Assembly (NCBI RefSeq): GCF_001661265.1
Contig: NW_017567006.1
Span: 1-64,000, forward strand
DNA from: Saitoella complicata NRRL Y-17804
Lineage: Eukaryota; Ascomycota; Saitoellomycetes; Saitoellales; Saitoellaceae
Direction: 5' to 3'
DNA: 64,000 bases
Below the pieces are notes generated by a model that saw nothing but the letters and a program-made list of their open reading frames with translations, was not told where the DNA came from and did no database searches. Positions 3,030 through 63,949 of the stretch are shown in pieces (position 1 is the stretch's first letter; each line of letters begins with the position of its first letter). A program made the position numbers and the translations under genes.

Positions 3030-3143
3030 GATAAGACAAAGACCAAGACGTAGTAGAGAAGACTTAGACAGGTCTTAGAATATCGGACCTAATAGTAATT
3101 CGTACGCGATCGTCCCGCACACAACCTCATTGAGAAGGCCTAT

Positions 3144-6100
3144 CTATGTCTCCCCATCCGAATCCCCCAAGATATCATCATCCAAACTCGTCCTCCCGAG
3201 CGTCGAATACTCTCCCCTCGCAAAACTACCCCTGGTCGTGAACCTCTTATTTCTCGAAATCATCCCCGCAACAGCCCCCCCAAGGGCTTTCAAGAGTGCC
3301 GGAACAGTCATCACCACCGCAGCGAGTGCAGAAACCGCGATAATGGGGTATCGCACAACGGGACTATCCTCAACCCTGACCCCCTCATCCCCGAGCCTGA
3401 TTTGGCCATATCGAGCTTGCCATCTCGCGTACACATACCACGCAACACCACCAGCAGCCAAGAACGGCAGCAAGATCACCACGAACAATCCGAAACCGTG
3501 CAAGCCCTTCTTTCCCCTCTCACGCTCAAATTCGCGTTCTTTTCCGGGGCAGGCGTGTGCGATGAATTTATCCAACTCCTTTCCACCCTGACAAGTCGTG
3601 ATCGGAATACGACGGTATCCAGTCGGCTCGAACCACTCCACCACATCAGCCTGTGCACAAACCAGCGAGTGATCCAGGGGCGTCGCACCATCGACGAGCA
3701 CACACGACCCATCACTCGCTCTCTGGTAGTTGAAATCACATTCGAAGTCCTGGCGGGTACAAGTGCAGTTATCAAGAATCTTGTGCGGCTGCGGGATCCT
3801 GGAGCCAATGTAGCAGAGATGGTCCGTAAGTTTGCGGTGGTACTGAGCTTTATGGCCGAAGAGACAGCCGTTCTCGGATTCAGGGTGCATGGGAGTCCAG
3901 AGCTCGAAATCGTCGTCCGCGGCGTTCTCGGGGTCGAGGTTACATTGACGGTCGGTCAGGCCAGTGAAGTCAAGCTGAATAGCCAGGACCTTGTCAGAGT
4001 GTGTCGACTTGCCAAAGAGGAGGAAGCGACGGCTGGTATCCGAGGGAACAGTGGCGATATCGGTGACCTTTACCTTCGCATCCTCGTTCGCGAACACGTA
4101 CTCCTCCCAGCTTTCACCCTCGTTCAGGGTGTAGAGGATCTTGTTCGTAGGCTCGCGGTCATTGACGATGACGATGATCGAACCCTGGTCGCCGTACTCC
4201 CACATGTACGTACCCTTGTGTGCCTCCTTCCAGGTCACGCCACCATTACGGGTAATGAACGTGTTGCCGTCACCGTAACCCGTCAAGTATTCGCCAACGT
4301 TTCCAACACTGAGCATGAGGCCGACAGCAGATCCAGAAGACAATGTGTCCCGGAAGTCCTTGCGCTCGGTGTAGCCGTGCAAGTTGAGAGAGCACTGCTC
4401 CAACGATCCAGAACAGAAGGACTTGCCCTCCGAATCTTTTTTCGGCGGCGCAATGAAGTTCCACTCCCCACCATCGTTGTGAGTAGCTTTCGTCTTAAGC
4501 TTCTTATTGGCTCCGGCCAAAGCATCGTCAGCGTTGGTCACGACGTTGATGACCGCAACACCTTCCAATCCCTGCATCTTCTCGAAGTCGACGTAGCCGT
4601 AGGTGTCACGATTGACCTTCTCCTCAGACAGGACATAATACGTTCCGTTCGAGTTGGACTTCATAATGGAACCCCATTCAGATCCAGTCCTCGGGTTGGT
4701 CGTTACGTGCAAGAAGATCGAGTCAGTGACAGAGTCCATAACGGTGTACGCCTGCTGATGATCGATCTTGAACTTAGGCGGGAAGTGCGCCTTGGCGTAG
4801 TTCTTGCCATCGACGGTAACATGCATGGTCAAAGCCTTGCTTTCCTCGTCAAGCTCAGCGACAACGATATACTCCTCCACGGGGGCGAACCCAACCATTT
4901 GCTTGAAGTGCACATTCTTGTCTTTCTCGAAGTAATCATTCGAAGAGATCAACTGAAGGTCGCGCGCAGTCATCGACTCCTGTGCTCCAGACTCGGAAGA
5001 ATACTTCTCGCAAATGACAAGATCGTCGTCAACCACGAACTTCTTTCCGCGAGCCCAGGAGCAAGTGCGAACATACTGCGCAATCTTATCCCAGCTGAAA
5101 CCACCGTCCTTGGAGTAGTATGCGACAGCATGGCAGTTGTCACCGAAGACATCCTCGCAGTTCTTGCCGCCCGTGTAAATGATCCAGTCTGAATGAACGG
5201 GATGGAACTGCAGCACCTGAACTCCGAACCCGTTGGGAGGAAGTGGTGTTTCAACTTCCGAGATCGTCTTTGCGCGATCCTTGGAGAAGAAGAGCTTTTT
5301 CGACACAGTCAAGAAGTAGACGTAATCCTTGAAGTAGGGGTGCGGAACGATCGAGATGACCTCCTGGTCAACCAAGATCCTGTCCCACTTACCACCCTGG
5401 TCATGCGTCTTCCACACCTCATTCTTCGTGGTCCTCAGAATCACAGTCTCATCATTTCCAGATGATGTCTCAGAGCGCTCGAGATAGTAGTACTGCTTCA
5501 CCTCGCCCTTGAACTCGGTCTGGTGGTGTCCGACCTTTCCGCTAGGCACGTGCATCTCTCCACAGGTCTTCTCGACCGGCTCATCCTTCCTGACACCCTT
5601 GCTCTTGTCGCAGGTGTTGCCGGGAATGAGTCGGTAGCCGCTAATGCCCATGTACTTGTCACCGGGCTTGGTACACTGACCAGGTGGGATAAGATCCGGT
5701 GCACCAGTAGCAGGAACACACTCACCATTATCTCCACGGACAAAGTTGTAGTCACACTCATAATCGGCATCCGTGCAAGGGCAGTTTTCTTCCACAGGGA
5801 CAGGATCTTCATACTTGTCTCCGACAAAGCACTCCCTATCAACCTTCTTCCTCCAGAAAAACTCCTTGTGTCCCATCAAGCACTGCGGCTGTCCATCCAC
5901 AGTACGTGCATACCACTTCTCAAAGTCGGACTTTCCTTCATCCTTCTCATCAAGCTTACACTTCTTCTCCCGCTCATCGAGGTCGGCAAAGTCGACAAAG
6001 ACCACGAGGGTCTTGCCCTCGTCTTTCTCACCACGAGCACCGGTTGCGAGGAGCGTGAACTTCCTACTCGTGGAGTCAGGGACGGTGGTCAACATTCTCG

Positions 6101-16842: not shown

Positions 16843-16916
16843 TGGTCACGGAGAGGCTCGAACTCTCAGCCTTGGCGTTATTAGCACCACGCGCTAACCA
16901 ATTGCGCCACGCAACC
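16843..16916 (-). tRNA. tRNA-Ile (anticodon AAT), copy 1
   Basis: A 74-nt cloverleaf without intron. The 7-bp acceptor stem GGTTGCG/CGTGACC has two G-T pairs, the D stem is GCGC/GCGC, the anticodon stem TGGTG/CGCCA holds the loop CTAATAA (anticodon AAT), and the T arm is GAGAG-TTCGAGC-CTCTC with discriminator A. The sequence is identical to the copies at 20207 and 30713. A 5'-flanking TAACAG is shared by all three copies. Confidence 0.97.
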
Positions 16917-20206: not shown

Positions 20207-20280
20207 GGTTGCGTGGCGCAATTGGTTAGCGCGTGGTGCTAATAACGCCAAGGCTGAGAGTTCGAGCCTCTCCGTGACCA
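20207..20280 (+). tRNA. tRNA-Ile (anticodon AAT), copy 2
   Basis: Identical over all 74 nt to the copies at 16843 and 30713 but on the opposite strand. With copy 1 it forms an inverted pair around YOS9 and the P-loop gene. The flank 'CTAACAG' precedes it, as in copy 1. Confidence 0.97.
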
Positions 20281-24504: not shown

Positions 24505-25144
24505 ATGGATGGGATGAGATGATTGAGGAGAGGAGAGGAATGTGTTTGCACGAGAAAAACACTTGTTCAACACAAAGTTAATACGTTGAGAACTCGTCAA
24601 CCGAGCATCTCCGTCAAAGAATGTTAGGCTTTACAGTGCCTTATTATTTATACAACAACTTAATATACATTTTGGATATTGCAACGAATTGCCAAACCTC
24701 CGCCTTTTCTTTCCAGGGACAGCCTACTGGTGGTGTTGTAGAATACCCTTACAGTATCACGGCCGCTCAGTTGCAAGATGATGAAAGCCATCTACATCCG
24801 ACAGCTTCAGTCTCTAAATCAAATTAGCAACGGGACAACTGAATGTCCCTCGCCTAGCTTGCTGGAACCACCGGTAACCTGAAGGGTGCGGTACAAAGCC
24901 CGGGAAAGCTGGCGACTCAGTCATCCAAGAGGTCCACATTGTTCAATCACATGTGACAATGAGATTGCAATTCGAGTGCTTCTCGATTGTATATCGAATT
25001 CGAATTAAGTAACAAAGATCCTGCCTAACTACTCTTTCTCGTAGTAAGATGCGTAACGTAAATCTCTATATGAAGTAAAAGTTGAAAACAAAACGAAAAC
25101 AAAAAACAAAAATCAAAAATCAAAAATCAAATCACGCCAATATC
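24505..25144. other. convergent 3' region with A-rich simple repeat
   Basis: 640 bp between the convergent 3' ends of the permease and the ABC transporter. Near 25083-25130 is a low-complexity (A)nC / CAAAAAT tract, perhaps part of the ABC transporter's 3' processing region on the minus strand (T-rich there). A 68-codon open frame at 24621 has no support. No gene is seen. Confidence 0.4.
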
Positions 25145-28100
25145 TCATACAGCGTGCCTACCCTGCAATCCGATATCACTGTTCTGGCTCGTGACAGTAG
25201 TCTCTTGCAAGGGGCCCATGCCCGAGGCCTGAGCACCAACAGCAGCATTCTGCTCCTGCCTGGCACCAGAGTTAATCACCTCGTGACCGGGGTTCTGTCC
25301 GTCACCCTGGTTCAAGACGACCTGGTTGCCAACAGCAGCAGCACCAGCCTTAGCGGCGCTGACAGCCTTGGCCTGCTTACCAGCTCCGCGGTTCCAGTTG
25401 TGGAGACGGAAAGCCCAGAGCAAGACAAAGGTCATGATCATATTGAACGCAACGTAACCGAGGAGGATACCAAAGTCCCTCCAGCGGTTATCCCAGGACA
25501 TGTCACGCGTAGCCAAGAAACCGTCACCGGTCTTGAAGGTACAGTACTGACAGTCAGCGGTAGCGTCAGGGTTGTAGAGGTAACCGGGAGCAACAGCGAG
25601 GTAAGCACCGGCGTACTCGTTACAAGTCTGTCCAGCAGCGGGCTGAAAGATGTTGATCTCCGCACCCTCGCACCGAACTGGAAGCTCGTGAAGCACATTG
25701 GAAAGCATACCCTCAATGAGGTAGGTGAAAGGAGACAAATGGTACATCCAGTGCCAGAAACCAACGAGCTGCGACAAAGGCTGCAAGACACCGTTGAAGA
25801 TAAGGACGAAGGAGAAGAAGAGAGTCTGAATGATAGCGGCAGTCTGAGCGTTGGGAGACGCAGCAGCGATAGCCTGACCGAAAGACGCAAAGAACATCTC
25901 GAAAACCATGAGCATCAACCACATGTATGCGTTTCTGTCAGCACCACCGGTACCGTTACGGAAGAATCCGATGGGCAAGTACCAACAGGCGTAGAACAAA
26001 GTACCGGCGAGCATGTTGTACGGAATCTCAACAATGATAGCAGCAAAGGTGAACGCAACCCAGTTGTACATCTTCGAGGGCCTCTCACGGACTTCGTACA
26101 AAGAACGCATGTCAATGAACCTCGGCTGAATCTGGTTGATCAACGAAGTGGACAAAACAACGGCCATGAAGATAGCGAAAAGACGGTTCTGCAAAGCAGC
26201 GAGACTGACGTCGAGCTTGTAGAAAGTGAAACCAATAAAGAGACCAGCGATGATGTTGAGAGCAACCTTGGAGGTGATGTACTCGGGGGAACGCCAGTAA
26301 AGACTGAACGTCCTCTTCATGACCTCCCAGAACTGAGTGCTGAAAGGCATGGCATACGAGGACAAGGAAGCAGAGTCCTGGTTATCCCTGTCATGCGCAT
26401 GCTCAGCCCTAAGACGCGTATGCATCTCATCCAACTCCTGAGTAACAGCCTGATTCTCAGGCGAACTCAACCAAATCTGATGCCAATCCTGAGACGCGCT
26501 AGCAGTGGCTCCAGCACCGATCACATCCAAGATGTACTCAGCGGGGTTATCGGTACGTCCACACTTGTGACCACCATTCCTCTCAAAGTAATCGATCATG
26601 GTACGAGAATCCCGTCCGATGTCACCAAAGTAAACAGTCTTACCACCCTTCTGCAACAACAAAAGACGGTCGAACTGCTCGAACAAGACAGCGGAAGGCT
26701 GGTGAATGGTACACAAAATAGCTTGTCCAGCGTTGGCCAACTTCCTCAAGAAAACGACGATGGACCAAGCGGATTGGGAGTCAAGACCGGAAGTAGGTTC
26801 GTCCAAGAACAACAACAAAGCAGGCTTGGCAGCAAGTTCAACACCGACCGTCAAACGCTTCCTCTGCTCCACATTCAATCCCTCTCCAGGAACGCCAACA
26901 ACAGCCTCAGCATAATCCTCCATCTCGAGCAACTTGATAACAGTCTCAACATACTCATGCTTCTCCTTCTTACTCACACTCTTAGGCTGTCTCAACATCG
27001 CCGAGAACCTAAGCGCCTCCCTAACAGTCGTCTGAGCAAGATGCACATCCTGCTGCTGAACATATCCAGTCTTCCTCTGGAAAGAAGCATCGAGTGGGGA
27101 TCCATTGACGAGCATGTCACCAGTGATAACACCGGTCGTAACACGCTGCGCAAGAACATTCAACAACGTCGTCTTACCCGCACCAGACTCACCCATGAGC
27201 GCAGTAAGCGTACCAGGCTTCACGAATCCCTGAACATCACTCAACAACTTCCTCGGGTTGCCCTTGATCATGATGTCGTAATTCACATGCTGCCACGAGA
27301 AGGTATCCTTACTCAACGCAACGCTCTCCATCTCCTTACTCGGGGTCGTATCAGCCAACGCGCCTTGCTCACTCGCAATCGCCCCAGAATCCTGAGCCTC
27401 GAGATCGTCGACCGCCTTCCCAGCCGAAAGCGCCTCAGTAACGTGCTTCGGCGCCTTTCCCTTCCTGAAAACAAGAACCTCGCCACCAGCCTGAGCGGTA
27501 GACATGAACTCCGTCGCCAACAGATTCACAGCAAGGAAGAAAATCCAAAACCCGATAATGATACCGAAATTCCTCCACAAGTGCGAAAAGGAATACCCAA
27601 ACGACGCATCCAAATACGAATCACCCGAGACGATGGTAGAGCCAGCCGTAGCTCCCGTGACCGCACAGACCTGTCCATTTGGGACAGCAGCATACGCAGC
27701 ACCGAATGGCACCAAAGACGTCGCGGCACACTGCACGTTACGTCCATGGAACTCGTTAACCATGAGCGACTCAAACCCATAAGCAACAGGATTAATGTAC
27801 GAAATCCACCTGAAATACCCACGCATACTCGGGCGGGGAATGACATACCCAGTATAGATCGCAATGGCAAGAACACCAATACCACCCAACATCATCGCAT
27901 CATTCACCGTCCTCGTCAACGCCGCAAGCGCCCGGAAAAAGGCAGTCATGCAAAGCGTCGTAATGAACGTAAACAAATAGAAAATCCAAAACTGTCCAGC
28001 TTTCCGCTGAAGCCCCGTCATGAAATACAGAATGATATCAAACGCGGTCAACACAGCAAGCTGAATCGGGATATCACTCAACAACGATGCAAACGCATCC

Positions 28101-29821
28101 GCACTCGGATGGTAGAGCGCATAACTCTTATGCTTCAAAATAATCGGCCTCTGCTCATACATCGACGCAATCTCCGACATAGCCTGCAAGGCATTATACA
28201 GAATCGCAAAAAACAACACACCACCCAACGAGAAAAACCCCGAGGTGTCTTGTGCCGTATCATAAAACACACTCCCAATAATCAAACTCTGGAAAATCGC
28301 CGCAAAGACTTTCGAGAACAAGAAGGGTTTGTCGCCCCATGTGCGTTGGTAGGAGCGTTTGATACAGGCGTTGAGTTGCATGCGGTAGTTGACCGTATAC
28401 GGAGACTTTTTGCGTTGGTGCTTGGCCTTTTCCTGCGCAGTGGACGCATCAAACATCTCCAACGTTTGCTGCCCGTCATGTCGGCCTTCATGCGCCCCCA
28501 TCTCCACCAACATCCTCTGATACTCCGGACTCGCGCGCCAGTACTTCTCAAACTCATCCGCCGTCCTCGGTACCCGACTCTCCCACCCCGACTTCGGGAA
28601 ACGACCAGCGGGATCCGTAACAGCGGTCAAGAAATCCGCGGTGGCTTGGCGGGGGGGACATTCGAATCCCATCCTCTCAAAGAACTCTTTCGCGTCTTCG
28701 ATGGGTCCGAAGAAGATCTGGTGTCCGTCATACAGAATCGTAACTTTATCAAAAACCTGATAAATCTGCTCTCCAGCCTGATAAATCGCGACAACAGCCA
28801 CGTTCTTGGCAAGGTTTGTCGCAACCCTCAAAGCACGGGCGAACTCGAGCGCGGTAGAGGCATCCAATCCACGCGTCGAGTTATCCCACATCCCAAGCCT
28901 GGCCCTGGTCGCCAACATCTCCGCGATACTCACCCTCTTCCTCTCACCCCCACTAACACCCCTCACGAAATCATTCCCAACCTTCGTATTATACGTATGT
29001 CTCAGCCCAAACACCGTAGCGAGGACATCCCTCACAATCGCGATATACTCCTTCCTACTGTGATCCTCCAACCGCGAACGAGGGGCGCGGGCTTCGGCTG
29101 CGAAACGGAGGGTTTGGTCGACGGTCATGGTAGGGAAGTGGGTATCGACTTCGGCGTTGTAGACGACTTCTCCCCTGAAACGGGATTTCATGGTTGCTTG
29201 GTCGAGGCCGTGGTAGGTGACCGCACCATCAACTGATTCGAACCCCGATGTTTCTCCCGCCAAACTCTTCAAAAGGGAGGTACACCCCGCTCCAGGCCTC
29301 CCAAGCACGAGCAACATCTCCCCTTCCTCCACAACACCATTAAGCCCATGCAAAATTGTCTTCATCGGCGTCTTCGCAAACATCCCGCCCAGATTCCAGT
29401 TGGAGAGGGTAGGCTGGAATGTCGCGCCAGCACCCTTTCCGCGGACCGTTAAATCCTTAAACAACAACCCCGCACTACGGTGCAAGATACCCTGCTTACT
29501 GCTTCTCGCCAACACATCTCTCAAGTACTTTTCCAGATCGAAGCCGTCGGGAGAGAGGAGGTGTTGTTGATCGGAGTGGGAGGTGCGTTTGGAGAGAGTG
29601 CGGACGAGTTCGTCCATCTCTGCATCCGTGAGATCGTGGGCGGCGACGGCGGGGGTGTTGACGCCGGAGGGATAGGCGGTTGTGGTTTCGGTGCCACCAT
29701 ACTGAATGTTGTCGTGAGCGACCGCGACCGTCCGAGGCGACGAAGACGAAGTGGAGGTCTGCAACTCGATCGGCTCAGCCAACGTGAGATCATGATCAGG
29801 GTGAGCGGCGTTCATGGCCAT
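25145..29821 (-). CDS. pleiotropic drug resistance ABC transporter (PDR/CDR, ABCG full-size)
   Basis: A single exon of 1558 residues in the reverse (NBD-TMD)2 order of PDR transporters. NBD1 has the fungal-type Walker A 'GRPGAGCTSLLK' (Cys replaces Lys), the signature 'VSGGERKRVSIAE' and a Walker B region 'GMWDNSTRGLDAST'. TMD1 has six helices. NBD2 has the canonical 'GESGAGKTTLLN', the degenerate signature 'LNVEQRKRLTVGVEL' and 'LLFLDEPTSGLDSQ'. TMD2 has the large cysteine-bearing external loop before the last helix. This asymmetry, with one composite catalytic site degenerate, is normal for Pdr5/Cdr1/Snq2 proteins. They export azoles and other hydrophobic compounds across the plasma membrane. 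Two ATGs (29821 and codon 3) lie close together. Its codon bias creates a 1384-codon antisense open frame that is not a gene. Confidence 0.96.
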   Translation of the reverse strand: MAMNAAHPDHDLTLAEPIELQTSTSSSSPRTVAVAHDNIQYGGTETTTAYPSGVNTPAVAAHDLTDAEMDELVRTLSKRTSHSDQQHLLSPDGFDLEKYLRDVLARSSKQGILHRSAGLLFKDLTVRGKGAGATFQPTLSNWNLGGMFAKTPMKTILHGLNGVVEEGEMLLVLGRPGAGCTSLLKSLAGETSGFESVDGAVTYHGLDQATMKSRFRGEVVYNAEVDTHFPTMTVDQTLRFAAEARAPRSRLEDHSRKEYIAIVRDVLATVFGLRHTYNTKVGNDFVRGVSGGERKRVSIAEMLATRARLGMWDNSTRGLDASTALEFARALRVATNLAKNVAVVAIYQAGEQIYQVFDKVTILYDGHQIFFGPIEDAKEFFERMGFECPPRQATADFLTAVTDPAGRFPKSGWESRVPRTADEFEKYWRASPEYQRMLVEMGAHEGRHDGQQTLEMFDASTAQEKAKHQRKKSPYTVNYRMQLNACIKRSYQRTWGDKPFLFSKVFAAIFQSLIIGSVFYDTAQDTSGFFSLGGVLFFAILYNALQAMSEIASMYEQRPIILKHKSYALYHPSADAFASLLSDIPIQLAVLTAFDIILYFMTGLQRKAGQFWIFYLFTFITTLCMTAFFRALAALTRTVNDAMMLGGIGVLAIAIYTGYVIPRPSMRGYFRWISYINPVAYGFESLMVNEFHGRNVQCAATSLVPFGAAYAAVPNGQVCAVTGATAGSTIVSGDSYLDASFGYSFSHLWRNFGIIIGFWIFFLAVNLLATEFMSTAQAGGEVLVFRKGKAPKHVTEALSAGKAVDDLEAQDSGAIASEQGALADTTPSKEMESVALSKDTFSWQHVNYDIMIKGNPRKLLSDVQGFVKPGTLTALMGESGAGKTTLLNVLAQRVTTGVITGDMLVNGSPLDASFQRKTGYVQQQDVHLAQTTVREALRFSAMLRQPKSVSKKEKHEYVETVIKLLEMEDYAEAVVGVPGEGLNVEQRKRLTVGVELAAKPALLLFLDEPTSGLDSQSAWSIVVFLRKLANAGQAILCTIHQPSAVLFEQFDRLLLLQKGGKTVYFGDIGRDSRTMIDYFERNGGHKCGRTDNPAEYILDVIGAGATASASQDWHQIWLSSPENQAVTQELDEMHTRLRAEHAHDRDNQDSASLSSYAMPFSTQFWEVMKRTFSLYWRSPEYITSKVALNIIAGLFIGFTFYKLDVSLAALQNRLFAIFMAVVLSTSLINQIQPRFIDMRSLYEVRERPSKMYNWVAFTFAAIIVEIPYNMLAGTLFYACWYLPIGFFRNGTGGADRNAYMWLMLMVFEMFFASFGQAIAAASPNAQTAAIIQTLFFSFVLIFNGVLQPLSQLVGFWHWMYHLSPFTYLIEGMLSNVLHELPVRCEGAEINIFQPAAGQTCNEYAGAYLAVAPGYLYNPDATADCQYCTFKTGDGFLATRDMSWDNRWRDFGILLGYVAFNMIMTFVLLWAFRLHNWNRGAGKQAKAVSAAKAGAAAVGNQVVLNQGDGQNPGHEVINSGARQEQNAAVGAQASGMGPLQETTVTSQNSDIGLQGRHAV

Positions 29822-30712: not shown

Positions 30713-30786
30713 TGGTCACGGAGAGGCTCGAACTCTCAGCCTTGGCGTTATTAGCACCACGCGCTAACCAATTGCGCCACGCAACC
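30713..30786 (-). tRNA. tRNA-Ile (anticodon AAT), copy 3
   Basis: Identical in all 74 nt to the copies at 16843 and 20207, again preceded by TAACAG. A run of five T residues (minus strand, 30700-30704) nine bases downstream serves as terminator. Confidence 0.97.
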
Positions 30787-48235: not shown

Positions 48236-49703
48236 TCATTCCGCCAAGAACCGTTCAACTTCAATACCAACACCCCGTCCCAACCCCCTCACAACCTCCC
48301 ACCCAACATTAACCCTCCACCTCCCCCCACCATCCCCAACACCATCCCCCGCCCCCGTCTTAACCATCAACCGTAGCGTACCCAACGTCGCAACCTGCCT
48401 TGAAACATCTACATTCCCCTTCATCAACCTCACATGATCCTCCTCATCGAGCAGCGAATGGAAAATCGCCAACATCCGCTCCAACGGGAATGGTCTGGGG
48501 CCGAGGAGTCGCTGAGGGATCTTTGCGTCGTGTTTCCGGATTTCTTTCGCTACTGCACCGCCTTTTCTGCGGCGAGTGGGGGCTCCGCCACCTTTTGAGA
48601 AGTACCGAGCATCGAGTCGGGCTGGGTTGTAGGATGCCAGGAAGGCAGCGATGAGTAGCATCTTTGCCGTATACGGTAAATCATACTGTCCCATCCTCCC
48701 TTCCTGTACTTCCTCCCCAGGAATAAGCCGTGCCCTAACCCCGTCTTCACCCCGGAACAACCCACTCGCAACAGCGTGCCGATACAACCCCATAAACGTC
48801 CCCCCCGTCCCCGGACTCCACGATTCCCGCCCATTCCGTAAAGGTTTGAGAAACCGCGGCCAAAGTCTCCCACAAGCTTCCTGTAACAGTTCCGCAGAAT
48901 TAAGTCCGAGGGTTTTTTGGATGGTATCGACGAAGCGGGGCCAGTAACTTGTTAGGACTTCCCACCACGCATTCTCTCTCGCTTCGTATTCGTCCTGTTC
49001 CCATTCTGCCTCATCCTCTCCCACGGGGTCGAATGTCACGCGTGGAAAGGGGTGGGAGGAGATGAGGGCTGTTAGGGAGGTTGGTGGGGGTGTTGGGAAG
49101 GAGATGGAGGGCTGTGAGGGGAGATGGCGGGGTGGGTGGGGGGTTAGGAGGAGGGTTGTTAGGGTTGGGATGGAGGTTAGTGAGGAGAGTGAGGTGAGGG
49201 TTTGGAGGAGGGTTGGGAGGGCGAGGGATGTGAGGAGGTGGACGGATGAGAAGACCTGGGACACAATCGGATGTTAGTACATATAGTAAACACAAGTGGT
49301 GGTGGGGACTCACTAAAACGATCTTGGTGGTACGTGAAGTGTAAGCGTGTCGCACAGCAGCCACAAACGCCGTCAAATCACCCATCCGTAGACTCTCACT
49401 CCGTACTTCATCCCCTTCCTCAACCCATACCTCCCCGCCCACGACAGCCTCAAAAATGAGGCGAGGCGTGATGGTCTCGACACAGTTGATCCAGCGGTAT
49501 TCCACGTCATCACTCCCTTCCAGTACAGCTCTCAGTGCATGCTCGGGTAGTCCGCCGGGAATCGATAGAGCTGGTCCGTAGAGTAGGATAGAGGGTGGTG
49601 AGGGCAGGGTGGGGTATGACAGCAGCGTCGTCAGGGTTCGGAGCTGTGTGGTTAGGGTAGGGTATTGAGGGATCAAGGAGGCCAGTAACTCGTTTGGTAA
49701 CAT
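48236..49703 (-). CDS. ORC5: origin recognition complex subunit 5
   Basis: Exons 49314..49703 and 48236..49255 (intron 58 nt, phase 0) encode 469 residues, like yeast Orc5 (479). The N-terminal AAA+-like part has 'PPSILLYGPALSIPGGLPE', where Orc5 proteins normally have GPPxTGKT: the Walker A Lys and Thr are gone. 'YRWINCVETITPRLIFEAVV' and the Walker B-like 'TKIVLVFSSVHLL' (across the intron) follow. The C-terminal Orc5 domain is typical: 'YDLPYTAKMLLIAAFLASYN', 'PARLDARYFSKG', 'RRRKGG', 'PFPLERMLAIFHSLL'. Orc5 is a structural ATPase-fold subunit of ORC, which marks replication origins. It shares a 139-bp divergent promoter with ERG26. Confidence 0.93.
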
Positions 49704-49842
49704 GATATTATGGGAGAATTGGCCGAGGGGGGGTTCGGTGTGGTGTTTATTACCCAGGATCGCAGCCAGGGCACGTGTTCCCCATACAATACGTCGCGGT
49801 GATACAGTACCACGACAAAACACAACTCCGTTCAAATCCAAG

Positions 49843-50951
49843 ATGTCCACAAAGAAATACAACTTCAATTCCGCTCTGGTCATCGGAGGGTGTGTACCCA
49901 TACTCCGTCGCTCCTATGAACAGGACTAACAAGTACACATAGCTGCGGCTTCCTCGGCGGCCACATCGTCTCCCACATCCTCGACAGCGACCCCTCCATC
50001 TCCATCTCCGTCATGGACCTCCGCATCCCCAACACCCCACCCCACCCCTCCGTCGCCTACCATGCCGGCGACATCACCTCCCTGGACGACATGACCCGCA
50101 TCATCCAATCCACCCGTCCAGACGTGATTATCCACACCGCATCCCCCGTACACGGCATGGGCCGCGATATCTACTTCAAAGTCAACGTCGAAGGGACACG
50201 CACAATTTGCCGCGCGGCGAAAGCTGAGGGTGTGAAAGCAATGGTATTCACCAGTTCGGCGGGCGTGGTGTTCGATGGGGATGACCTCATTAACGTTGAC
50301 GAGAGTGCGCCGATCCCCGTGGTTGCGATGGATGCGTATAACGACTCCAAAGCCGAAGCAGAGAAACTCGCTCTCGGCGCGAATTGTGACGAGTTCCGCG
50401 TGTGCGCAATCCGTCCCGCTGGGCTCTTCGGCGAGGGGGATCGTCAGTTGATCCCCGGAATGCTCTCCGTCCTCGCGAACGGACAAACTCATTTCCAACT
50501 CGGCGACAATCTCAATTTATTCGATTTCACATACATCCTCAACGCCGCGCACGCCCACCTCCTTGCCGCCAACCAAATACTCTCCCCAGACCCTTCTATC
50601 GTCTCCACCGTCGCCGGCGAAGCTTTCTTCATCACAAACGCCAGCCCAATCTACTTCTGGGATTTCCCGCGTACACTCTGGTCCCACCTCTCCCACGTCT
50701 CAAGCCGGCACCTCATCCTCCCGCGTTCCCTCGCCGTGGTTCTCGCGGGCGCTGCGGAGTGCTGGAGTTGGATCGTGGGGAAGGAGCCGGGCTTTACGCG
50801 GTTTAGGGTAAAGTTCTCGTGTGCGAATCGGTATTATAATATTGGGAAGGCGAGGAGGGTGTTGGGGTATGAGCCGATTGTGGGCTTGGAGGAGGGGATT
50901 AGGAGGAGTTTGGCATGGGTTGATGAGGAGAAGGCGAAGGAGGGGAAGTGA
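49843..50951 (+). CDS. ERG26: sterol-4-alpha-carboxylate 3-dehydrogenase (C-3 sterol dehydrogenase)
   Basis: Exons 49843..49889 and 49943..50951 (intron 53 nt, phase 2) give 351 residues, the size of yeast Erg26 (349). The extended-SDR NAD site is split by the intron: 'ALVIGG' joins 'CGFLGGHIVSHIL'. The catalytic YxxxK is present ('VVAMDAYNDSKAEAEKLAL') with an upstream 'VFTSSAGVVFDG' Ser. The 3-beta-HSD family motifs 'HTASPVHGMGRDIYFKVNVE' and 'RPAGLFGEGDRQLIPGML' are clear. It oxidises and decarboxylates 4-carboxysterols during C-4 demethylation in ergosterol synthesis at the ER, with Erg25 and Erg27. It faces ORC5. Confidence 0.95.
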
Positions 50952-51881: not shown

Positions 51882-54013
51882 ATGTCAACAACGGAAGCGA
51901 GAAGGAAAGCAGAGCTCGAAGCTAAACGCGCAAAGCTCGCCGAGCTGAAGAGAGCCAAAGCGGAGCGGTCATCCGCGTTCGCTGCGTTACAGGCACAACC
52001 CCCAGCCGGCACCGCGGGGTCACACAGCGTGAGTGTATGCACCCCGTTTATACAGGTGGAAGGTGCTGACTTGGGTGTGGGGGTGTGTAGAGCGGTCCAA
52101 GTCCACCACCAACCCGCGATAGAACCGAGATAGACAACCTCGTCTCCTCACTCCTCGGAGATCGACCACGTACCTCAGCTTCTACATCCTCGCATTCCAG
52201 CGGCGTTCCCGCAACACCGACCCAAACTGACTCTGCACCCCGTCCACAGTCCTCTTCGGCTTCGTTAGGGCTTGCAACGGCGCCGCTCGTCACGATTCTG
52301 GATGTTGCGCCGCCGGTGGTGAAGGAGGTTGTGACGTATAGTAAGGAGGTTCAGACGATGGAGGTATGCGTTGGAAGTTACGAGGAGGGTGAGCAGAGGG
52401 ATATGGTGGGACGGGAGACGGAGGAGGAACTACGAGCCAGAATCCGCGTGGAGGTCGAGGAGGAGCAGAGAAGACTGGCGAAGGAAGACCAAGGGGAACA
52501 GCAATTGCAGAAGCGTGACGTCGAGGCTACTCCAGGTCGGATAAATGCCACCTAAATGTACAAGATGGCTGACAATCATCCTATAGAACTCACCGAACCG
52601 GAACTCGATAACCTCCGCACCGCACCCTCCCTCGCCTCCTTCCTCGACCGCTCAACACGCGTACTATCCCGTGCCCTAGCGGAAGAAAACTACGACATCC
52701 TCAAAGATTACTCAGCGTCACTTACCCCCACCAACACGGACACCGAATCATCCACACTCACGCAAATTCACCAGTTCTACGATACGAGCCGAGGAAGAGG
52801 ACGCGCGGTAACGGCTCTTGATTTCTGTACACAGCACCCGGAACTCGTACTCGCATCCTACACCAAAGGCTCCGGCACAGTCGCCACGAGCACGGCGCCA
52901 GGGTTGATCCAGATTTTCAATTCGTATGCGGATCCGGGTGTCGCGGAATACTCGTTCACCGCACCCAGCGATATCTTGAGTGCGCAATTCTCACCATTCG
53001 ATCCGCATATAGTGGTAGGAGGTTTATACAGCGGTCAAATCATGCTATGGGATCTCCGCGCCGGCGAGCGCGCAGTCCTCCGTTCACCCCTAACCACAAC
53101 CTCCTCTTCCACCTCAACCGGCCTCCTAGGCCACTCATCCCCCGTCTACGCAACCTCAATCATCGGAACCCAAAACGCCGCATCCCTAATCTCCGTCTCC
53201 ACCGACGGCCATTTCTGCGCCTGGTCCCTCGACCAACTCTCCGCGCCCCTCGAATCCCTCCCCCTCATCTCACCCCTAAACCACACCGAAATCGCACCGA
53301 CTTGTCGGATGCCACCCAACCCCCGTAACCATCGCACCACCCCCATGTCCCCCAACCCACCCCCTAACCCCCGCCTTCGCACCCGCCCCCCCCGCCCGAT
53401 CATACCTCGCACAACCCCACACCCCCCCCTCCTCCGTCCCCACCACGAACGCCGTCGGATCCCGCGGATGAAACGCGAGGGAAGGGGGATGGGAATGGGG
53501 GTTGGGGTTGGGGAGTTGGGGGAGGTTGTTGTTAGTTGTGGGTTGGATTGGAGTGTGAAGATTTGGCGGGGGCAGAATGCGAACGCGAACGTTAGCACGA
53601 ATGGCAAGTCTGTGGGGCAGGCGAGCGCGAAGGTTAGGGAGGAGGAAGCGGCGTTGACCTATCTCCGGGAAGAAATTGTCTATGACGTCGCCTGGCACCC
53701 AACCCGTCCCTCCATCTTCGCTACCGTCGACGGCTCCGGCGCGCTGGACATCTTCGACATCGTCCGCGACCAAGAAATCAGCGTCGCGCGCGCAACACTC
53801 ATCCCGCACCCATCCACCTCTACAAACGCGAGGAGTAGAAGTTTGAATAAAGTTAGGTGGGAAACGGGGAGCGGTGATGGGAGACGGGTTGCAGTGGGTG
53901 GGTTGGGTGGTGTCGTTAGTGTTTTTGATGTTGGGAAGGAGTTGGGGGGGGAGGGAGGGGGGCTGGAGGAGGCGGGGGCTGTTAAGAGGATTTTAGGGGG
54001 TGGGAGACGATGA
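51882..54013 (+). CDS. cytoplasmic dynein intermediate chain, with an inverted internal segment
   Basis: Exons 51882..52028, 52091..52535 and 52587..54013 (introns 62 and 51 nt) give an open frame of 672 residues. The N-terminal charged coiled coil ('ARRKAELEAKRAKLAELKRA', the p150/NudE-binding type) is followed by a linker with a dynein light-chain-like motif ('TYSKEVQT'), then WD repeats ('VTALDFCTQHPELVLASY', 'SAQFSPFDPHIVVGGLYSGQ', 'SISTDGHFCAWSLDQLSAPL', 'VVSCGLDWSVKIW', 'AWHPTRPSIFATVDGSGALD'). Between 'HTEIAPTC' and the 'GLDWSVKIW' blade, codons 53306-53479 encode proline-rich nonsense; read on the other strand they give the missing intermediate-chain sequence. The frame survives, but a WD blade is lost. 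The chain links dynein heavy chain to dynactin and light chains for minus-end motility. Confidence 0.85.
53306..53479 (-). other. in-frame inversion of 58 codons inside the dynein intermediate chain gene
   Basis: The minus strand of this 174-bp stretch encodes, without a stop, 58 residues starting 'LAFHPRDPTAFVVGTEEGGV', running through 'YDRAG' and 'AKAGV' and ending 'VTGVGWHP'. This is exactly the blade that other dynein intermediate chains have between 'VTC' and the following 'DWTVKLW' blade. Both edges fall on codon boundaries of the plus-strand frame (TGT ends at 53305), and 174 is divisible by three, so the flanking frame stays open. CGGATG occurs at 53306-53311 and near 53465-53470, close to both ends. 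It could be a real micro-inversion or an assembly error. Confidence 0.85.
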
Positions 54014-56614: not shown

Positions 56615-56730
56615 TCTCTGGAACTTCCCCAGAGGTGGTGAGGGTAAACACAGAGCTGCGCGTCCGACAGGCACCCGCACGTCGCAGTCGACGTTACAGT
56701 ACTCCACCAAAAATCCAGCAACCTTCACCA

Positions 56731-57627
56731 ATGCCTCCAAGAATACCCCTTCCCGCACTCAGAATACCCGGCACCCTCCACCATGCCCGTCCCCTCCTCT
56801 CACGACCATCGCACATGCCAATCCCACAACACCACCTCCACTCAACCCTAAACCAAGAAGAAATATCCCACTTCGACTCCCTGGCCCAGACATGGTGGGA
56901 CCCACACGGTGAATCCCGGATGCTGCATCTCATGAACCCGACGCGGGTGCGGTTAATTCTGGATCATCTTGCCCCGTCGTTGGTTGAGGGCACCGAACCG
57001 TTAAAGGGAAAGAGGATATTGGATGTTGGGTGTGGAGGAGGTGTATTGAGTGAATCCCTCGCACGACTGGGAGCGACGGTACAAGGCCTCGACGGATCTC
57101 CAATGGCAATCAAAGTCGCAAAAGGCCACGCACGACGATCACCAGAGTTAATGGACGGAAGGCTGGACTACGTGAATTCCACCACAGAGAAGCTCGTGCT
57201 CGAAAAACCCACAAAACAATACTCCGTCATCACAGCAATGGAAATCCTCGAACACGTCGATAACCCCTCCCTCTTCCTCTCCCACCTAACCTCCCTCCTC
57301 GCACCAAACGGGTACCTCTTCCTCTCCACCATCTCCCGGACTCCACTCTCCTACCTCCTCACCATCTTCGCCGCGGAACATCTGCTGAGGATGGTCCCCG
57401 TCGGAACGCATTCGTGGAAGAAGTATATCAACCCGGAGGAGTTGAGGGGGTGGTTTGAGGCGAGGGAGGAGATGGATGTGGTGGAGGTTAGAGGCGTGAT
57501 TTATGTGCCGTGGGAGGGCAAGTGGAGGACTATGCACCCGGGGGAGAAGTGGGCCGAGGGGTGTAATTATTTTTTGGTGGCGAGGAAGAAGGGAGCTGCT
57601 GAACCCCAGGTTGAGGTTCAGGCATGA
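56731..57627 (+). CDS. COQ3: ubiquinone biosynthesis O-methyltransferase Coq3
   Basis: Single exon, 298 residues from the first ATG (56731). The N-terminus is Arg-rich without acids ('MPPRIPLPALRIPGTLHHAR'), fitting a mitochondrial presequence. The mature part begins 'EEISHFDSLAQTWWDPHGES' (family hallmark) and has SAM motif I 'ILDVGCGGGVLSESLARLG', 'VQGLDGSP' (motif II region) and 'ITAMEILEHVDNPSLFL' (motif III), with UbiG/Coq3 motifs 'GTHSWKKYINPEEL' and 'NYFLVARK'. It carries out both O-methylations of coenzyme Q at the matrix side of the inner membrane. The frame is open upstream but lacks another ATG. Confidence 0.94.
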   Translation: MPPRIPLPALRIPGTLHHARPLLSRPSHMPIPQHHLHSTLNQEEISHFDSLAQTWWDPHGESRMLHLMNPTRVRLILDHLAPSLVEGTEPLKGKRILDVGCGGGVLSESLARLGATVQGLDGSPMAIKVAKGHARRSPELMDGRLDYVNSTTEKLVLEKPTKQYSVITAMEILEHVDNPSLFLSHLTSLLAPNGYLFLSTISRTPLSYLLTIFAAEHLLRMVPVGTHSWKKYINPEELRGWFEAREEMDVVEVRGVIYVPWEGKWRTMHPGEKWAEGCNYFLVARKKGAAEPQVEVQA

Positions 57628-61546: not shown

Positions 61547-62002
61547 TTTTGCTTGTTTTTGGGTTTGTGTGTGTGGGTTGTAGAAGAAGGAAGGTTAAGG
61601 TGGAGAGAATCTTCGGGTCAGTCGGGGACTCTAGGGAGCGGAGATTGGGGTGATGACGAAAGCACGGTGGGGTCAGGTGATATCGGCAATGTACATGGAT
61701 TTTGCTGTGTGTAAATTTCTAATAATTCCAGAATCAATATCAATGAAGTGATTGAGTCTGGAAGAAAGTCACAGAAGGGAACAGGTTGAGTGCCGATGAG
61801 CCATTTTCTCGCTTCCGCCCCTGACTATCCAACTTTTTTGGTTGTGCTGGCGCGGACTCCACACTCCTCTGAGACGCACCGCCTCACCGCCGGCTCTCTT
61901 CGCTCTCTTCGCTCTCTTCGCTCTCTTTCACGCACTCAGCCTCCACCAACCGTTCATTCTAGCCGACCAAGCAATTGGATCCGGGCTGCTTCGGGAACAA
62001 CC
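61547..62002. other. divergent region between SOD1 and the MFS transporter, with a 9-bp repeat
   Basis: 456 bp. At about 61896-61931 the 9-mer GCTCTCTTC is repeated nearly four times. If translation of the transporter started at the ATG at 61796, this tract would encode 'SLRSLRSLRSLS'; if it starts at 62003, the tract is a pyrimidine-rich leader, which is commoner. Confidence 0.5.
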
Positions 62003-63949
62003 ATGCGAGAAGAACTCCCCTCCAACCCGCTGGAACTGATCCAATCACACCCAGCACCAATCCACCGCCCAACAGAACACGAACTCGAAGACCCAGAACA
62101 CCTCCTAAAAGACGTCCTCTTCCCCCAGGACGCATACACCCCCGACGGAACATACTGGGCCGACCTCCCCTTCTGGCCCCGAGTCCACTGGATCAACGCC
62201 CAAAACTCTGCCGAAACAAAACGCGAATTGGCAGCCCTATGGGCGACCTTCAAAAATGATCCCCTCGACCCCATTCGGATTTACTTCAAGAAGTATGTTA
62301 TGACCGGGATGGGGTTGTTTGTTGAGGGATACACGCTTTTCAGTGTCGGGAATATCAAACCCTTGTTTCAGGTTGTTTGGCCAGCGTGTTGGAGTACTTT
62401 CGCAGTCTGCGACCGGACATGGACCCACGCAGTCGAATACCTCGAAATCGTCGGTATCATCGTCGGGCAGATCTACGTCGGTATCATCGGTGACTGGATC
62501 GGGCGCCGAATGGGAATGATCCAAGATGCAGCGATCATGACACTCGGCTGTATCCTCCTCACAGGAATGTGGGGAACGAGTTTGAATGGGTGGGTCATCA
62601 TGTATGCACTCTCGCTCATGTTTTACTCTGTCGGTGTCGGAGGCGAGTACCCAATGACAGGCATCTCCGCAATGGAAACATCCTCCCTCCGATCCTCCTC
62701 CGACGACAAACTCCACCGCGGCCGGAACGTCTCCCTAGCATTCCTCATGCAAGGCTGGGGCCAACTCGCGAACCAAGCTATCCTCATCGTGGGCATGTTG
62801 GCATTCCATGGTGGTGCGAGTGAGCCTTACAGTAAACTCGCGACACAGTGGACGTTTAGGGTGAGTTTTGCGGCGGTGGGGGTTGTTACCGCATACCTCC
62901 TCTACCACCGAATTTACCACCTCAAATTCGCGGACCAAGCACTCCGCATCTCGAAGAAGAAGCAGAAAGTCACCGGGTATGACGTACAGTCCCTCAAACT
63001 CGTATCTACGCACTACTGGCACCGACTCGTGGGTACCGCGGGGGGATGGTTCGCCAACGACTTTTTCTTTTATGGGAACAAGATTTTCCAAGGTGTCTTT
63101 CTGAGGATCATCACGCCTGATGCCTCGGTTATGGATTTGTGGTTGTGGAATTTGGTCAATATTGGGTGTTCGCTCGCTGGGTACTACCTCGCCGCACTCC
63201 TCATCGACCACAAACTCTACGGCCGGAAACACATGCAATCCGTCGGATTCTTGGTCCAGTTTATTTTGTTTATCATCCCGGCTGCGATGTACGATACACT
63301 CCGCACACCCGGGACCCCGATCAAGATCTTTCAGTTCTTATACTTTTTCTCGAGTTTCTGGCAGCAGTTTGGACCTAATTCGACGACGTTCTTGCTTGCT
63401 GCGGAAGTCTATCCCGCACCTGTTCGCGCTTCTGCCCACGGATTCTCGGCTGCGTGCGGGAAATTGGGAGCACTGATCCCGACAATCATCTACAACTACG
63501 TTCCCAACCACACCAAATTCTGGATCGTGACATGGTTTGGTCTACTAGGGCTCGGTTGCACAGTCCTCTTCATCCCCGACACGACTGGTTTGGATTTGGT
63601 CGAGCAGGAACGGTATTGGACATATGTCCGTGAAGGCCGCGAGCAGGAATATCATGGTATCGCTATCCATCCTCGGCATCTGAGTTGGTGGGAACGGGTT
63701 GTGTTGAAGAGGGATAGGGGGTATGATCCGGTGAAGGATCGGGAGGCGAAGATTAGGGAGTTGAGGGCGGTTTATGAGGCTGGCGTTGTTGAGGAGAAGG
63801 AGGAGGCCGAGAGGATGGGGAGTGGGAGTGTGGGGGAAGGTAGTGTGGATGGGGGGGTGGGGATGGATGAGAAGGTTAGTAGATATTTTGCGAGGGAGAG
63901 GGAGAGGGGTGCGGGGAGTTCTGCGAGTTCGGGGAGTTTGACTGCCTAA
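62003..63949 (+). CDS. major facilitator superfamily transporter (phosphate/sugar-type)
   Basis: Single exon, 648 residues from the ATG at 62003; an in-frame ATG at 61796 would add 69 Ser/Arg/Leu-rich residues with no domain. Twelve membrane segments are visible. MFS signatures: 'GIIGDWIGRRMGMIQDAAIM' (GxxxDRxGRR type, loop 2-3), 'GVGGEYPMTGISAMET' near TM4, and 'AAEVYPAPVRASAHGFSAAC' with 'PDTTGLDLVEQERYWTY' in the C-half. The GGEYP motif resembles the phosphate:H+ symporter branch (Pho84-like GGDYP), but the long N-terminus and tail differ and the substrate is unknown. The C-terminal tail is Gly/Ser/Glu-rich and lies wholly inside the window. Confidence 0.85.
   Translation: MREELPSNPLELIQSHPAPIHRPTEHELEDPEHLLKDVLFPQDAYTPDGTYWADLPFWPRVHWINAQNSAETKRELAALWATFKNDPLDPIRIYFKKYVMTGMGLFVEGYTLFSVGNIKPLFQVVWPACWSTFAVCDRTWTHAVEYLEIVGIIVGQIYVGIIGDWIGRRMGMIQDAAIMTLGCILLTGMWGTSLNGWVIMYALSLMFYSVGVGGEYPMTGISAMETSSLRSSSDDKLHRGRNVSLAFLMQGWGQLANQAILIVGMLAFHGGASEPYSKLATQWTFRVSFAAVGVVTAYLLYHRIYHLKFADQALRISKKKQKVTGYDVQSLKLVSTHYWHRLVGTAGGWFANDFFFYGNKIFQGVFLRIITPDASVMDLWLWNLVNIGCSLAGYYLAALLIDHKLYGRKHMQSVGFLVQFILFIIPAAMYDTLRTPGTPIKIFQFLYFFSSFWQQFGPNSTTFLLAAEVYPAPVRASAHGFSAACGKLGALIPTIIYNYVPNHTKFWIVTWFGLLGLGCTVLFIPDTTGLDLVEQERYWTYVREGREQEYHGIAIHPRHLSWWERVVLKRDRGYDPVKDREAKIRELRAVYEAGVVEEKEEAERMGSGSVGEGSVDGGVGMDEKVSRYFARERERGAGSSASSGSLTA

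What the first reader, a model, noticed from the sequence alone, without database searches (positions are those of the whole stretch)
53306..53479. In-frame 58-codon micro-inversion inside the dynein intermediate chain gene
The sense strand between the conserved 'IAPTC' and the next WD blade gives a proline/arginine-rich peptide unlike any WD protein. The antisense strand of the same 174 bp gives the exact blade expected there ('LAFHPRDPTAFVVGTEEGGV' through 'YDRAG' to 'GVGWHP'). Both edges sit on codon boundaries and the length is a multiple of three, so the reading frame is never broken. A natural inversion of this kind would make a dynein subunit with one scrambled blade; a reversible switch or a misassembled repeat are alternatives. 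CGGATG near both ends marks the 'HP' codons of two WD repeats, a possible clue to mechanism.
Basis: partly seen in the sequence, partly recalled or inferred. Interest (0 to 1): 0.85.

Follow-up and report, generated by a model that had tools for sequence, protein, structure and literature searches.

The report
Flipped DNA piece in dynein gene
In this probably fungal record a 174-base piece of a cell-motor (dynein) gene is printed back to front, so one blade of a propeller-shaped protein would be scrambled; it is either a rare, very recent natural flip or an error in the record.

Summary
Window 52556-54013 (+) is the main part of a cytoplasmic dynein-1 intermediate chain gene. Its sense strand matches human DIC2 on both sides of 53306-53479 but not within it. 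The opposite strand of those 174 bases encodes the missing WD blade: of 25,530 six-frame windows the best match to that human blade is here (77; best elsewhere 38). In a codon-usage scan of 21 ORFs this stretch ranks first. The antisense peptide is as close to human (21 of 47) as the flanks (92 of 223, 9 of 28, 34 of 79), so the flip is recent or artificial. The edges carry no symmetric inverted repeat, and CGGATG is a direct repeat, so a switch or repeat collapse is unsupported. The gene lies in the window's most G-quadruplex-dense kilobase, one motif starting at the right edge. I favour a recent, blunt, in-place microinversion that breaks the blade; an error in the record is a close rival. 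Neither reads nor fungal relatives were available to decide.

The parts
51882..54013 (+). Cytoplasmic dynein-1 intermediate chain gene, three-exon model 51882-52028, 52091-52535, 52587-54013; 672 residues in the printed orientation
   Evidence: Open joined reading frame; sense ORF 52556-54013 hits human DIC2, E 1.2e-58. Exon borders are my reading of splice sites; the second donor (GTCGGA) is weak.
53306..53479 (-). Inverted segment; the minus strand encodes the expected WD blade, the plus strand a 58-residue peptide with 18 Pro and 14 Arg (residues 438-495 of the model)
53305..53306 (.). Left breakpoint (one-base ambiguity: 53305/53306 or 53306/53307)
   Evidence: junction 10-mer occurs once in the window
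53479..53480 (.). Right breakpoint (53479/53480 or 53478/53479)
   Evidence: junction 10-mer occurs once in the window
53479..53501 (+). G-quadruplex motif that begins at the right breakpoint
   Evidence: Pattern match; 5 of the window's 24 motifs lie in 53001-54000
53349..53397 (-). Two G-quadruplex motifs inside the inverted segment (53349-53372, 53382-53397), on the strand that encodes the blade
   Evidence: Pattern match
53301..53303 (+). CTT, left arm of the only inverted repeat near both edges (AAG at 53482-53484), 3 nt
   Evidence: 97% of 300 random edge pairs do as well
53315..53342 (+). Left arm of an imperfect 28-nt inverted repeat (75%; right arm 53479-53506, with a 10-nt exact core CCCAACCCCC); one arm inside and one outside the segment
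   Evidence: in the other orientation of the segment the two copies are direct repeats

Best explanation
The sequenced DNA carries a very recent, balanced, in-place inversion of 174 bp inside the propeller-coding exon of the dynein intermediate chain gene. Shown: the segment is reversed relative to the gene that encodes the protein, it is otherwise undamaged, and there is no repeat of useful length and symmetry at its edges. Inferred: two breaks, or two polymerase jumps, in a G-rich, quadruplex-prone stretch (one motif starts at the right edge), with the freed piece rejoined the wrong way round and little or no homology used. Inferred consequence: translation runs through, but one blade of the WD propeller that holds the dynein heavy chain becomes a proline/arginine-rich stretch, so the allele is probably non-functional or weak. 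It would be a private or culture-borne mutation, not an adaptation; dynein intermediate chain loss is survivable but costly in at least one filamentous fungus.
For: Strand swap exactly in the homology gap. Codon usage prefers the antisense strand only here at this strength. No extra decay: 21 of 47 identical to human in the segment against 92 of 223, 9 of 28 and 34 of 79 in the flanks. Rest of the gene is open and complete. Junction 10-mers occur once in the window and there is no exact inverted repeat longer than 10 nt within 300 bp of the edges, so an assembly graph with ordinary k-mers has no obvious path to this order unless molecules with the junctions existed (inference). G4 motif at the right edge: 0.375% of window positions lie within 2 bp of a motif edge; densest kilobase, 5 of 24 motifs. 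Viable but growth-impaired deletion in Magnaporthe oryzae (PMC9971887, passages).
Against: No reads. A broken conserved gene fixed in a sequenced isolate is unlikely a priori. Surveys find such events rare or short in coding sequence: 0 of 59 human-chimpanzee microinversions (PMC8755829), 0 of 143 in a host-gene exon in Drosophila (PMC1779558), 17 coding ones of only 5-24 bp (PMC3227671). All 59 in PMC8755829 have flanking inverted repeats at the edges; here only 3 nt. G-rich stretches also provoke sequencing and assembly errors, so the G4 coincidence fits the rival as well, and it was noticed after the fact. The 10-nt exact core (within +-30 bp matched by 0.7% of controls) might hint at a repeat-aided event, though its arms are not placed symmetrically.
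Confidence: 0.5

Rival explanations
1. Error in the record: the living organism has the ordinary orientation, and the piece was turned round during assembly, gap filling or handling of the sequence.
For: The antisense blade shows no decay, as expected if nothing happened in nature. The gene is conserved and costly to lose (PMC9971887, passages). The stretch is G-rich with G4 motifs, where coverage often fails (recalled). Both outer edges fall on codon boundaries, about 1 in 9 by chance.
Against: Clean blunt junctions, no N in the window, no flanking inverted repeat of assembly-relevant length, no duplicated or lost bases visible, no second copy in the window; several very long intact ORFs (1,492 and 1,561 residues) argue for good base quality.
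Confidence: 0.42
2. Reversible switch: the segment flips back and forth and both orientations exist in a population.
For: The printed sense frame is open, so neither orientation would truncate the protein.
Against: No inverted repeats that could serve as crossover sites at the edges; an open antisense is ordinary (2,133 of 3,888); no recombinase was recognised when I read the ORF list, though it was not searched for by profile.
Confidence: 0.02
3. The printed segment is an intron or is spliced out, so the protein avoids the scrambled stretch.
For: GT at 53304 and AG at 53478-53479 bracket the segment; there is a branch-like CTAAC at 53364.
Against: GT(53304)-AG(53479) is 176 nt, which breaks the frame. 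No GTRNG donor occurs in 53101-53340. The three in-frame GT..YAG pairs (53195-53575, 53224-53535, 53224-53595) have poor donors and would remove neighbouring blades too. The blade on the opposite strand stays unexplained.
Confidence: 0.02
4. The printed sense peptide is a genuine lineage-specific insert and the antisense match is chance.
For: The sense frame is open and the gene is rich in C-rich stretches that code Pro/Ser/Thr elsewhere.
Against: Antisense score 77 against at most 38 elsewhere in 25,530 windows, at exactly the missing place; codon usage favours the antisense; as printed, the protein lacks the blade found at that place in human DIC2.
Confidence: 0.01

Closest known systems
Microinversions between related genomes (human-chimpanzee PMC8755829; Drosophila PMC1779558)
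   Same: A short balanced stretch reversed in place with the sequence otherwise kept
   Different: Those of PMC8755829 are 17-33 nt, all flanked by inverted repeats, none in coding sequence; those of PMC1779558 hit no host-gene exon (7 of 143 hit an exon of a nested or overlapping gene). This one is 174 bp, wholly in a coding exon, without edge repeats.
Ultramicro inversions in coding exons (PMC3227671)
   Same: Inversion inside a reading frame that replaces residues and keeps the downstream frame
   Different: The 17 coding cases there are 5-24 bp and change 2-9 residues; here 58 residues.
Short-range template switch mutations (PMC7954356)
   Same: Locally reversed copying can yield an in-place inversion; 5.5% of the gold-standard events there leave length unchanged
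   Different: Median copied stretch 12, maximum 128 there; here 174 with no priming homology beyond one base.
Cytoplasmic dynein-1 intermediate chain (human DYNC1I2; Chaetomium IC in PMC9771362)
   Same: N-terminal charged helix region (my reading), then WD repeats that align over most of the propeller
   Different: One blade is printed on the wrong strand.

Membership tests
Microinversion (balanced in-place inversion) | Segment homologous to the expected sequence only on the opposite strand, flanks collinear | tested here: met
   flanks on plus at chain residues up to 404 and from 461 on, segment on minus at 413-459
Microinversion (balanced in-place inversion) | No duplication or loss of the segment | tested here: inconclusive
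   No second copy in the window and no visible loss against human, but the genome and close relatives were not available
Microinversion (balanced in-place inversion) | Orientation present in real molecules | not testable with these tools
   No reads
Inverted-repeat-flanked microinversion class of PMC8755829 | Inverted repeat arms at the outer edges, symmetric | tested here: not met
   Within +-10 bp only a 3-nt CTT/AAG, matched by 97% of random pairs; a 10-nt exact pair within +-30 bp (0.7% of controls) has one arm inside and one outside the segment
Reversible DNA switch | Inverted recombination sites at both ends | tested here: not met
Reversible DNA switch | Dedicated recombinase | not tested
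   None recognised on reading the ORF list; no profile search made
Cytoplasmic dynein-1 intermediate chain | Full-length similarity to DIC over the WD propeller | tested here: met
   E 1.2e-58 to human DIC2 chain 7z8k_h, flanks of the segment only
Cytoplasmic dynein-1 intermediate chain | Complete set of WD blades on the sense strand | tested here: not met
   The blade at 53306-53479 is on the minus strand; so this is a DIC gene whose printed product is altered
Cytoplasmic dynein-1 intermediate chain | Light-chain, p150 and NudE binding N-terminus | not tested
   Exons 1-2 give a charged, helix-like start, not compared with any profile

The most novel reading that the evidence does not exclude
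The inversion is real and shared by a population or species: a dynein intermediate chain whose propeller keeps working, or works differently, with one blade replaced by a 58-residue Pro/Arg-rich peptide made from the antisense of the old blade, i.e. a new protein segment born at one stroke from the opposite strand of a conserved domain.
Probability: 0.04. Interest if true: 0.75.

Novelty: new member of a known kind. Interest (0 to 1): 0.38.

Why it matters
Microinversions are a known kind of mutation, but in the surveys whose passages I read they are absent from coding exons or very short there. A 58-codon case in a conserved motor gene would be a clear natural test of how much damage a WD propeller bears, and of inversion without flanking repeats next to G-quadruplex-prone DNA. 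If it is an error, it is a warning: an in-place inversion leaves the gene open and passes ordinary checks of annotation.

Tried and rejected
Assembly-graph cause by flanking repeats: looked for inverted repeats and second copies; only the non-symmetric 10-nt/28-nt pair and short patches turned up. CGGATG as mechanism: same orientation at both ends, hence a direct repeat, rejected. Microhomology for a template switch: one base inside each edge and CTT/AAG two bases outside; judged chance (97% of controls). Splicing out of the segment: rejected. A second flipped stretch: the ORC5-like gene (my naming) at 48236-49913 looked similar, with a Pro-rich frame, but is explained by an intron with the C-rich sense strand coding. 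In the codon scan the next segments (61898-62071, difference 9.5; 56680-56853, 9.1; against 12.2 here) lie near the 5' ends of stop-to-stop ORFs and contain antisense stops; I take them for untranslated sequence but did not test them by homology. ORF names in that scan are my own reading, and the training ORFs include some untranslated and intron bases.

Relatives: no whole genome is held for the window; genome contigs (20 pattern matches, 0 confirmed), viral contigs (73 pattern matches, 0 confirmed) and plasmids (no match) gave none. A second scan of genome contigs was allowed and not used. Structure prediction was not run: no relatives were available for an alignment. Papers; no paper on an inversion in a fungal dynein intermediate chain was seen, whose listings were short and of open-licence papers only.

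Full report
What is there. The ORF at 52556-54013 (+) is the main exon of a cytoplasmic dynein-1 intermediate chain gene (E 1.2e-58 to human DIC2). With two upstream exons that I read from splice sites, the model runs 51882-54013 and gives 672 residues without a stop. The organism is not identified by any search; from the gene structure and neighbours I take it for a filamentous ascomycete (recalled knowledge), and no whole genome is held.

The strand swap. In human chain 9dgr_g the sense frame aligns to residue 404, then weakly at 461-488 and well at 499-577. The translation of the opposite strand of 53306-53479 aligns to 413-459. The pieces are collinear and fill the gap. The single-peptide PDB E-values are weak (0.37 to 1.4; 10 of 12 hits are dynein intermediate chains, the first is CFAP100, one a neurotoxin), and Pfam and NCBIfam give nothing for the peptide. 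A control over the window is clearer: of 25,530 six-frame 58-codon windows the 14 best against the human blade all overlap this minus-strand segment, best 77; the first elsewhere scores 38; the same segment read in sense scores 13. Without any homology, a codon-usage comparison over 3,888 overlapping segments of 21 ORFs, trained without the dynein gene, puts 53303-53476 first (difference 12.2) and the exact segment at 11.5; the next elsewhere is 9.5.

Age. Identity to human is 21 of 47 in the antisense segment, 92 of 223 in the N-terminal flank, and 9 of 28 and 34 of 79 in the C-terminal flanks. The segment has no stop or frameshift on the antisense strand. So the flip is recent on the scale of this gene's evolution, or never happened in nature.

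An inversion keeps the length, so the downstream frame survives whatever the edges. The only risk is a stop inside, and 2,133 of 3,888 comparable segments have none on the antisense strand. The edges are uncertain by one base. The two CGGATG copies are in direct orientation.

Edges and mechanism. Within 10 bp of the edges the longest inverted match is CTT/AAG (97% of 300 random pairs do as well). Within 30 bp there is a 10-nt exact pair, CCCAACCCCC with GGGGGTTGGG, that only 0.7% of controls match, the core of a 28-nt 75% repeat; at +-100 and +-300 bp 9% and 52% of controls match it. Its arms lie one inside and one outside the segment, and in the other orientation of the segment they are direct repeats, so I do not see how they would set these breakpoints, but I cannot exclude a role. 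Each junction 10-mer occurs once in the window. Of 24 G-quadruplex motifs in the window, 5 lie in 53001-54000, the densest kilobase; two are inside the segment and one starts at 53479, the right edge. This fits breakage or fork stalling, and equally a sequencing problem, and was noticed after the fact. The window as a whole has patchy GC skew (SD 24.4 in 150-bp windows against 11.6 for 12-mer block shuffles), and the strongest of the steps listed is at 53465/53466, near the right edge.

Real or artefact. For a real event: blunt clean junctions, no N, no repeat long enough to mislead an assembler within 300 bp of the edges, and very long intact ORFs nearby. For an error: the lack of decay, the cost of losing the gene, the G-rich setting, and codon-aligned edges. 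I put the two close together, 0.50 and 0.42. A switch, a spliced intron and a chance antisense match are unlikely.

Consequence if real. The C-terminal domain of the intermediate chain is predicted to hold seven WD40 repeats that form a propeller binding the heavy chain (PMC9771362, passages). The printed protein has one blade replaced by a peptide with 18 Pro and 14 Arg of 58. Loss of function is the likely result (inference). In Magnaporthe oryzae, deletion of this gene is tolerated but impairs growth and abolishes conidiation and pathogenicity (PMC9971887, abstract and passages), so a broken allele could persist in culture.

Place among known things. PMC8755829 (abstract and passages): 59 microinversions of 17-33 nt, none in coding sequence, all flanked by inverted repeats. 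PMC1779558 (passages): none overlap a host-gene exon, 7 of 143 overlap an exon of a nested or overlapping gene, and three were confirmed by PCR. PMC3227671 (passages): 17 coding cases of 5-24 bp among 65 in exons. PMC7954356 (passages): template switches with a median of 12 and a maximum of 128 bases, depleted in coding sequence. This case belongs to the general kind and not to the inverted-repeat class; its length and its place in an exon are unusual.

Noticed in passing
window 1-64000: Strong patchy GC skew on a scale of 100-300 bp, also inside coding exons: SD 24.4 in 150-bp windows against 11.6 for 12-mer block shuffles. C-rich and G-rich stretches alternate along one gene.
   Followed up: partly
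window 16843-16916 (-), 20207-20280 (+), 30713-30786 (-): Three tRNA-Ile (AAT) genes with identical 74-base sequences within 14 kb.
   Followed up: no
window 25079-29236 (+) and 3099-5192 (+): Very long stop-free frames (1,385 and 697 codons) opposite long genes that look like an ABC transporter and a VPS10-like receptor (names are my reading).
   Followed up: no
window 48236-49913 (-): ORC5-like gene (my reading) with an intron and a very C-rich coding stretch whose wrong frame is Pro-rich; it resembles the flipped segment but is ordinary.
   Followed up: yes
window 52536-52552 and 53304-53319: The second intron of the dynein gene starts GTCGGATAAATGCCACC and the left junction reads GTCGGATGCCACCCAA; probably chance.
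   Followed up: no
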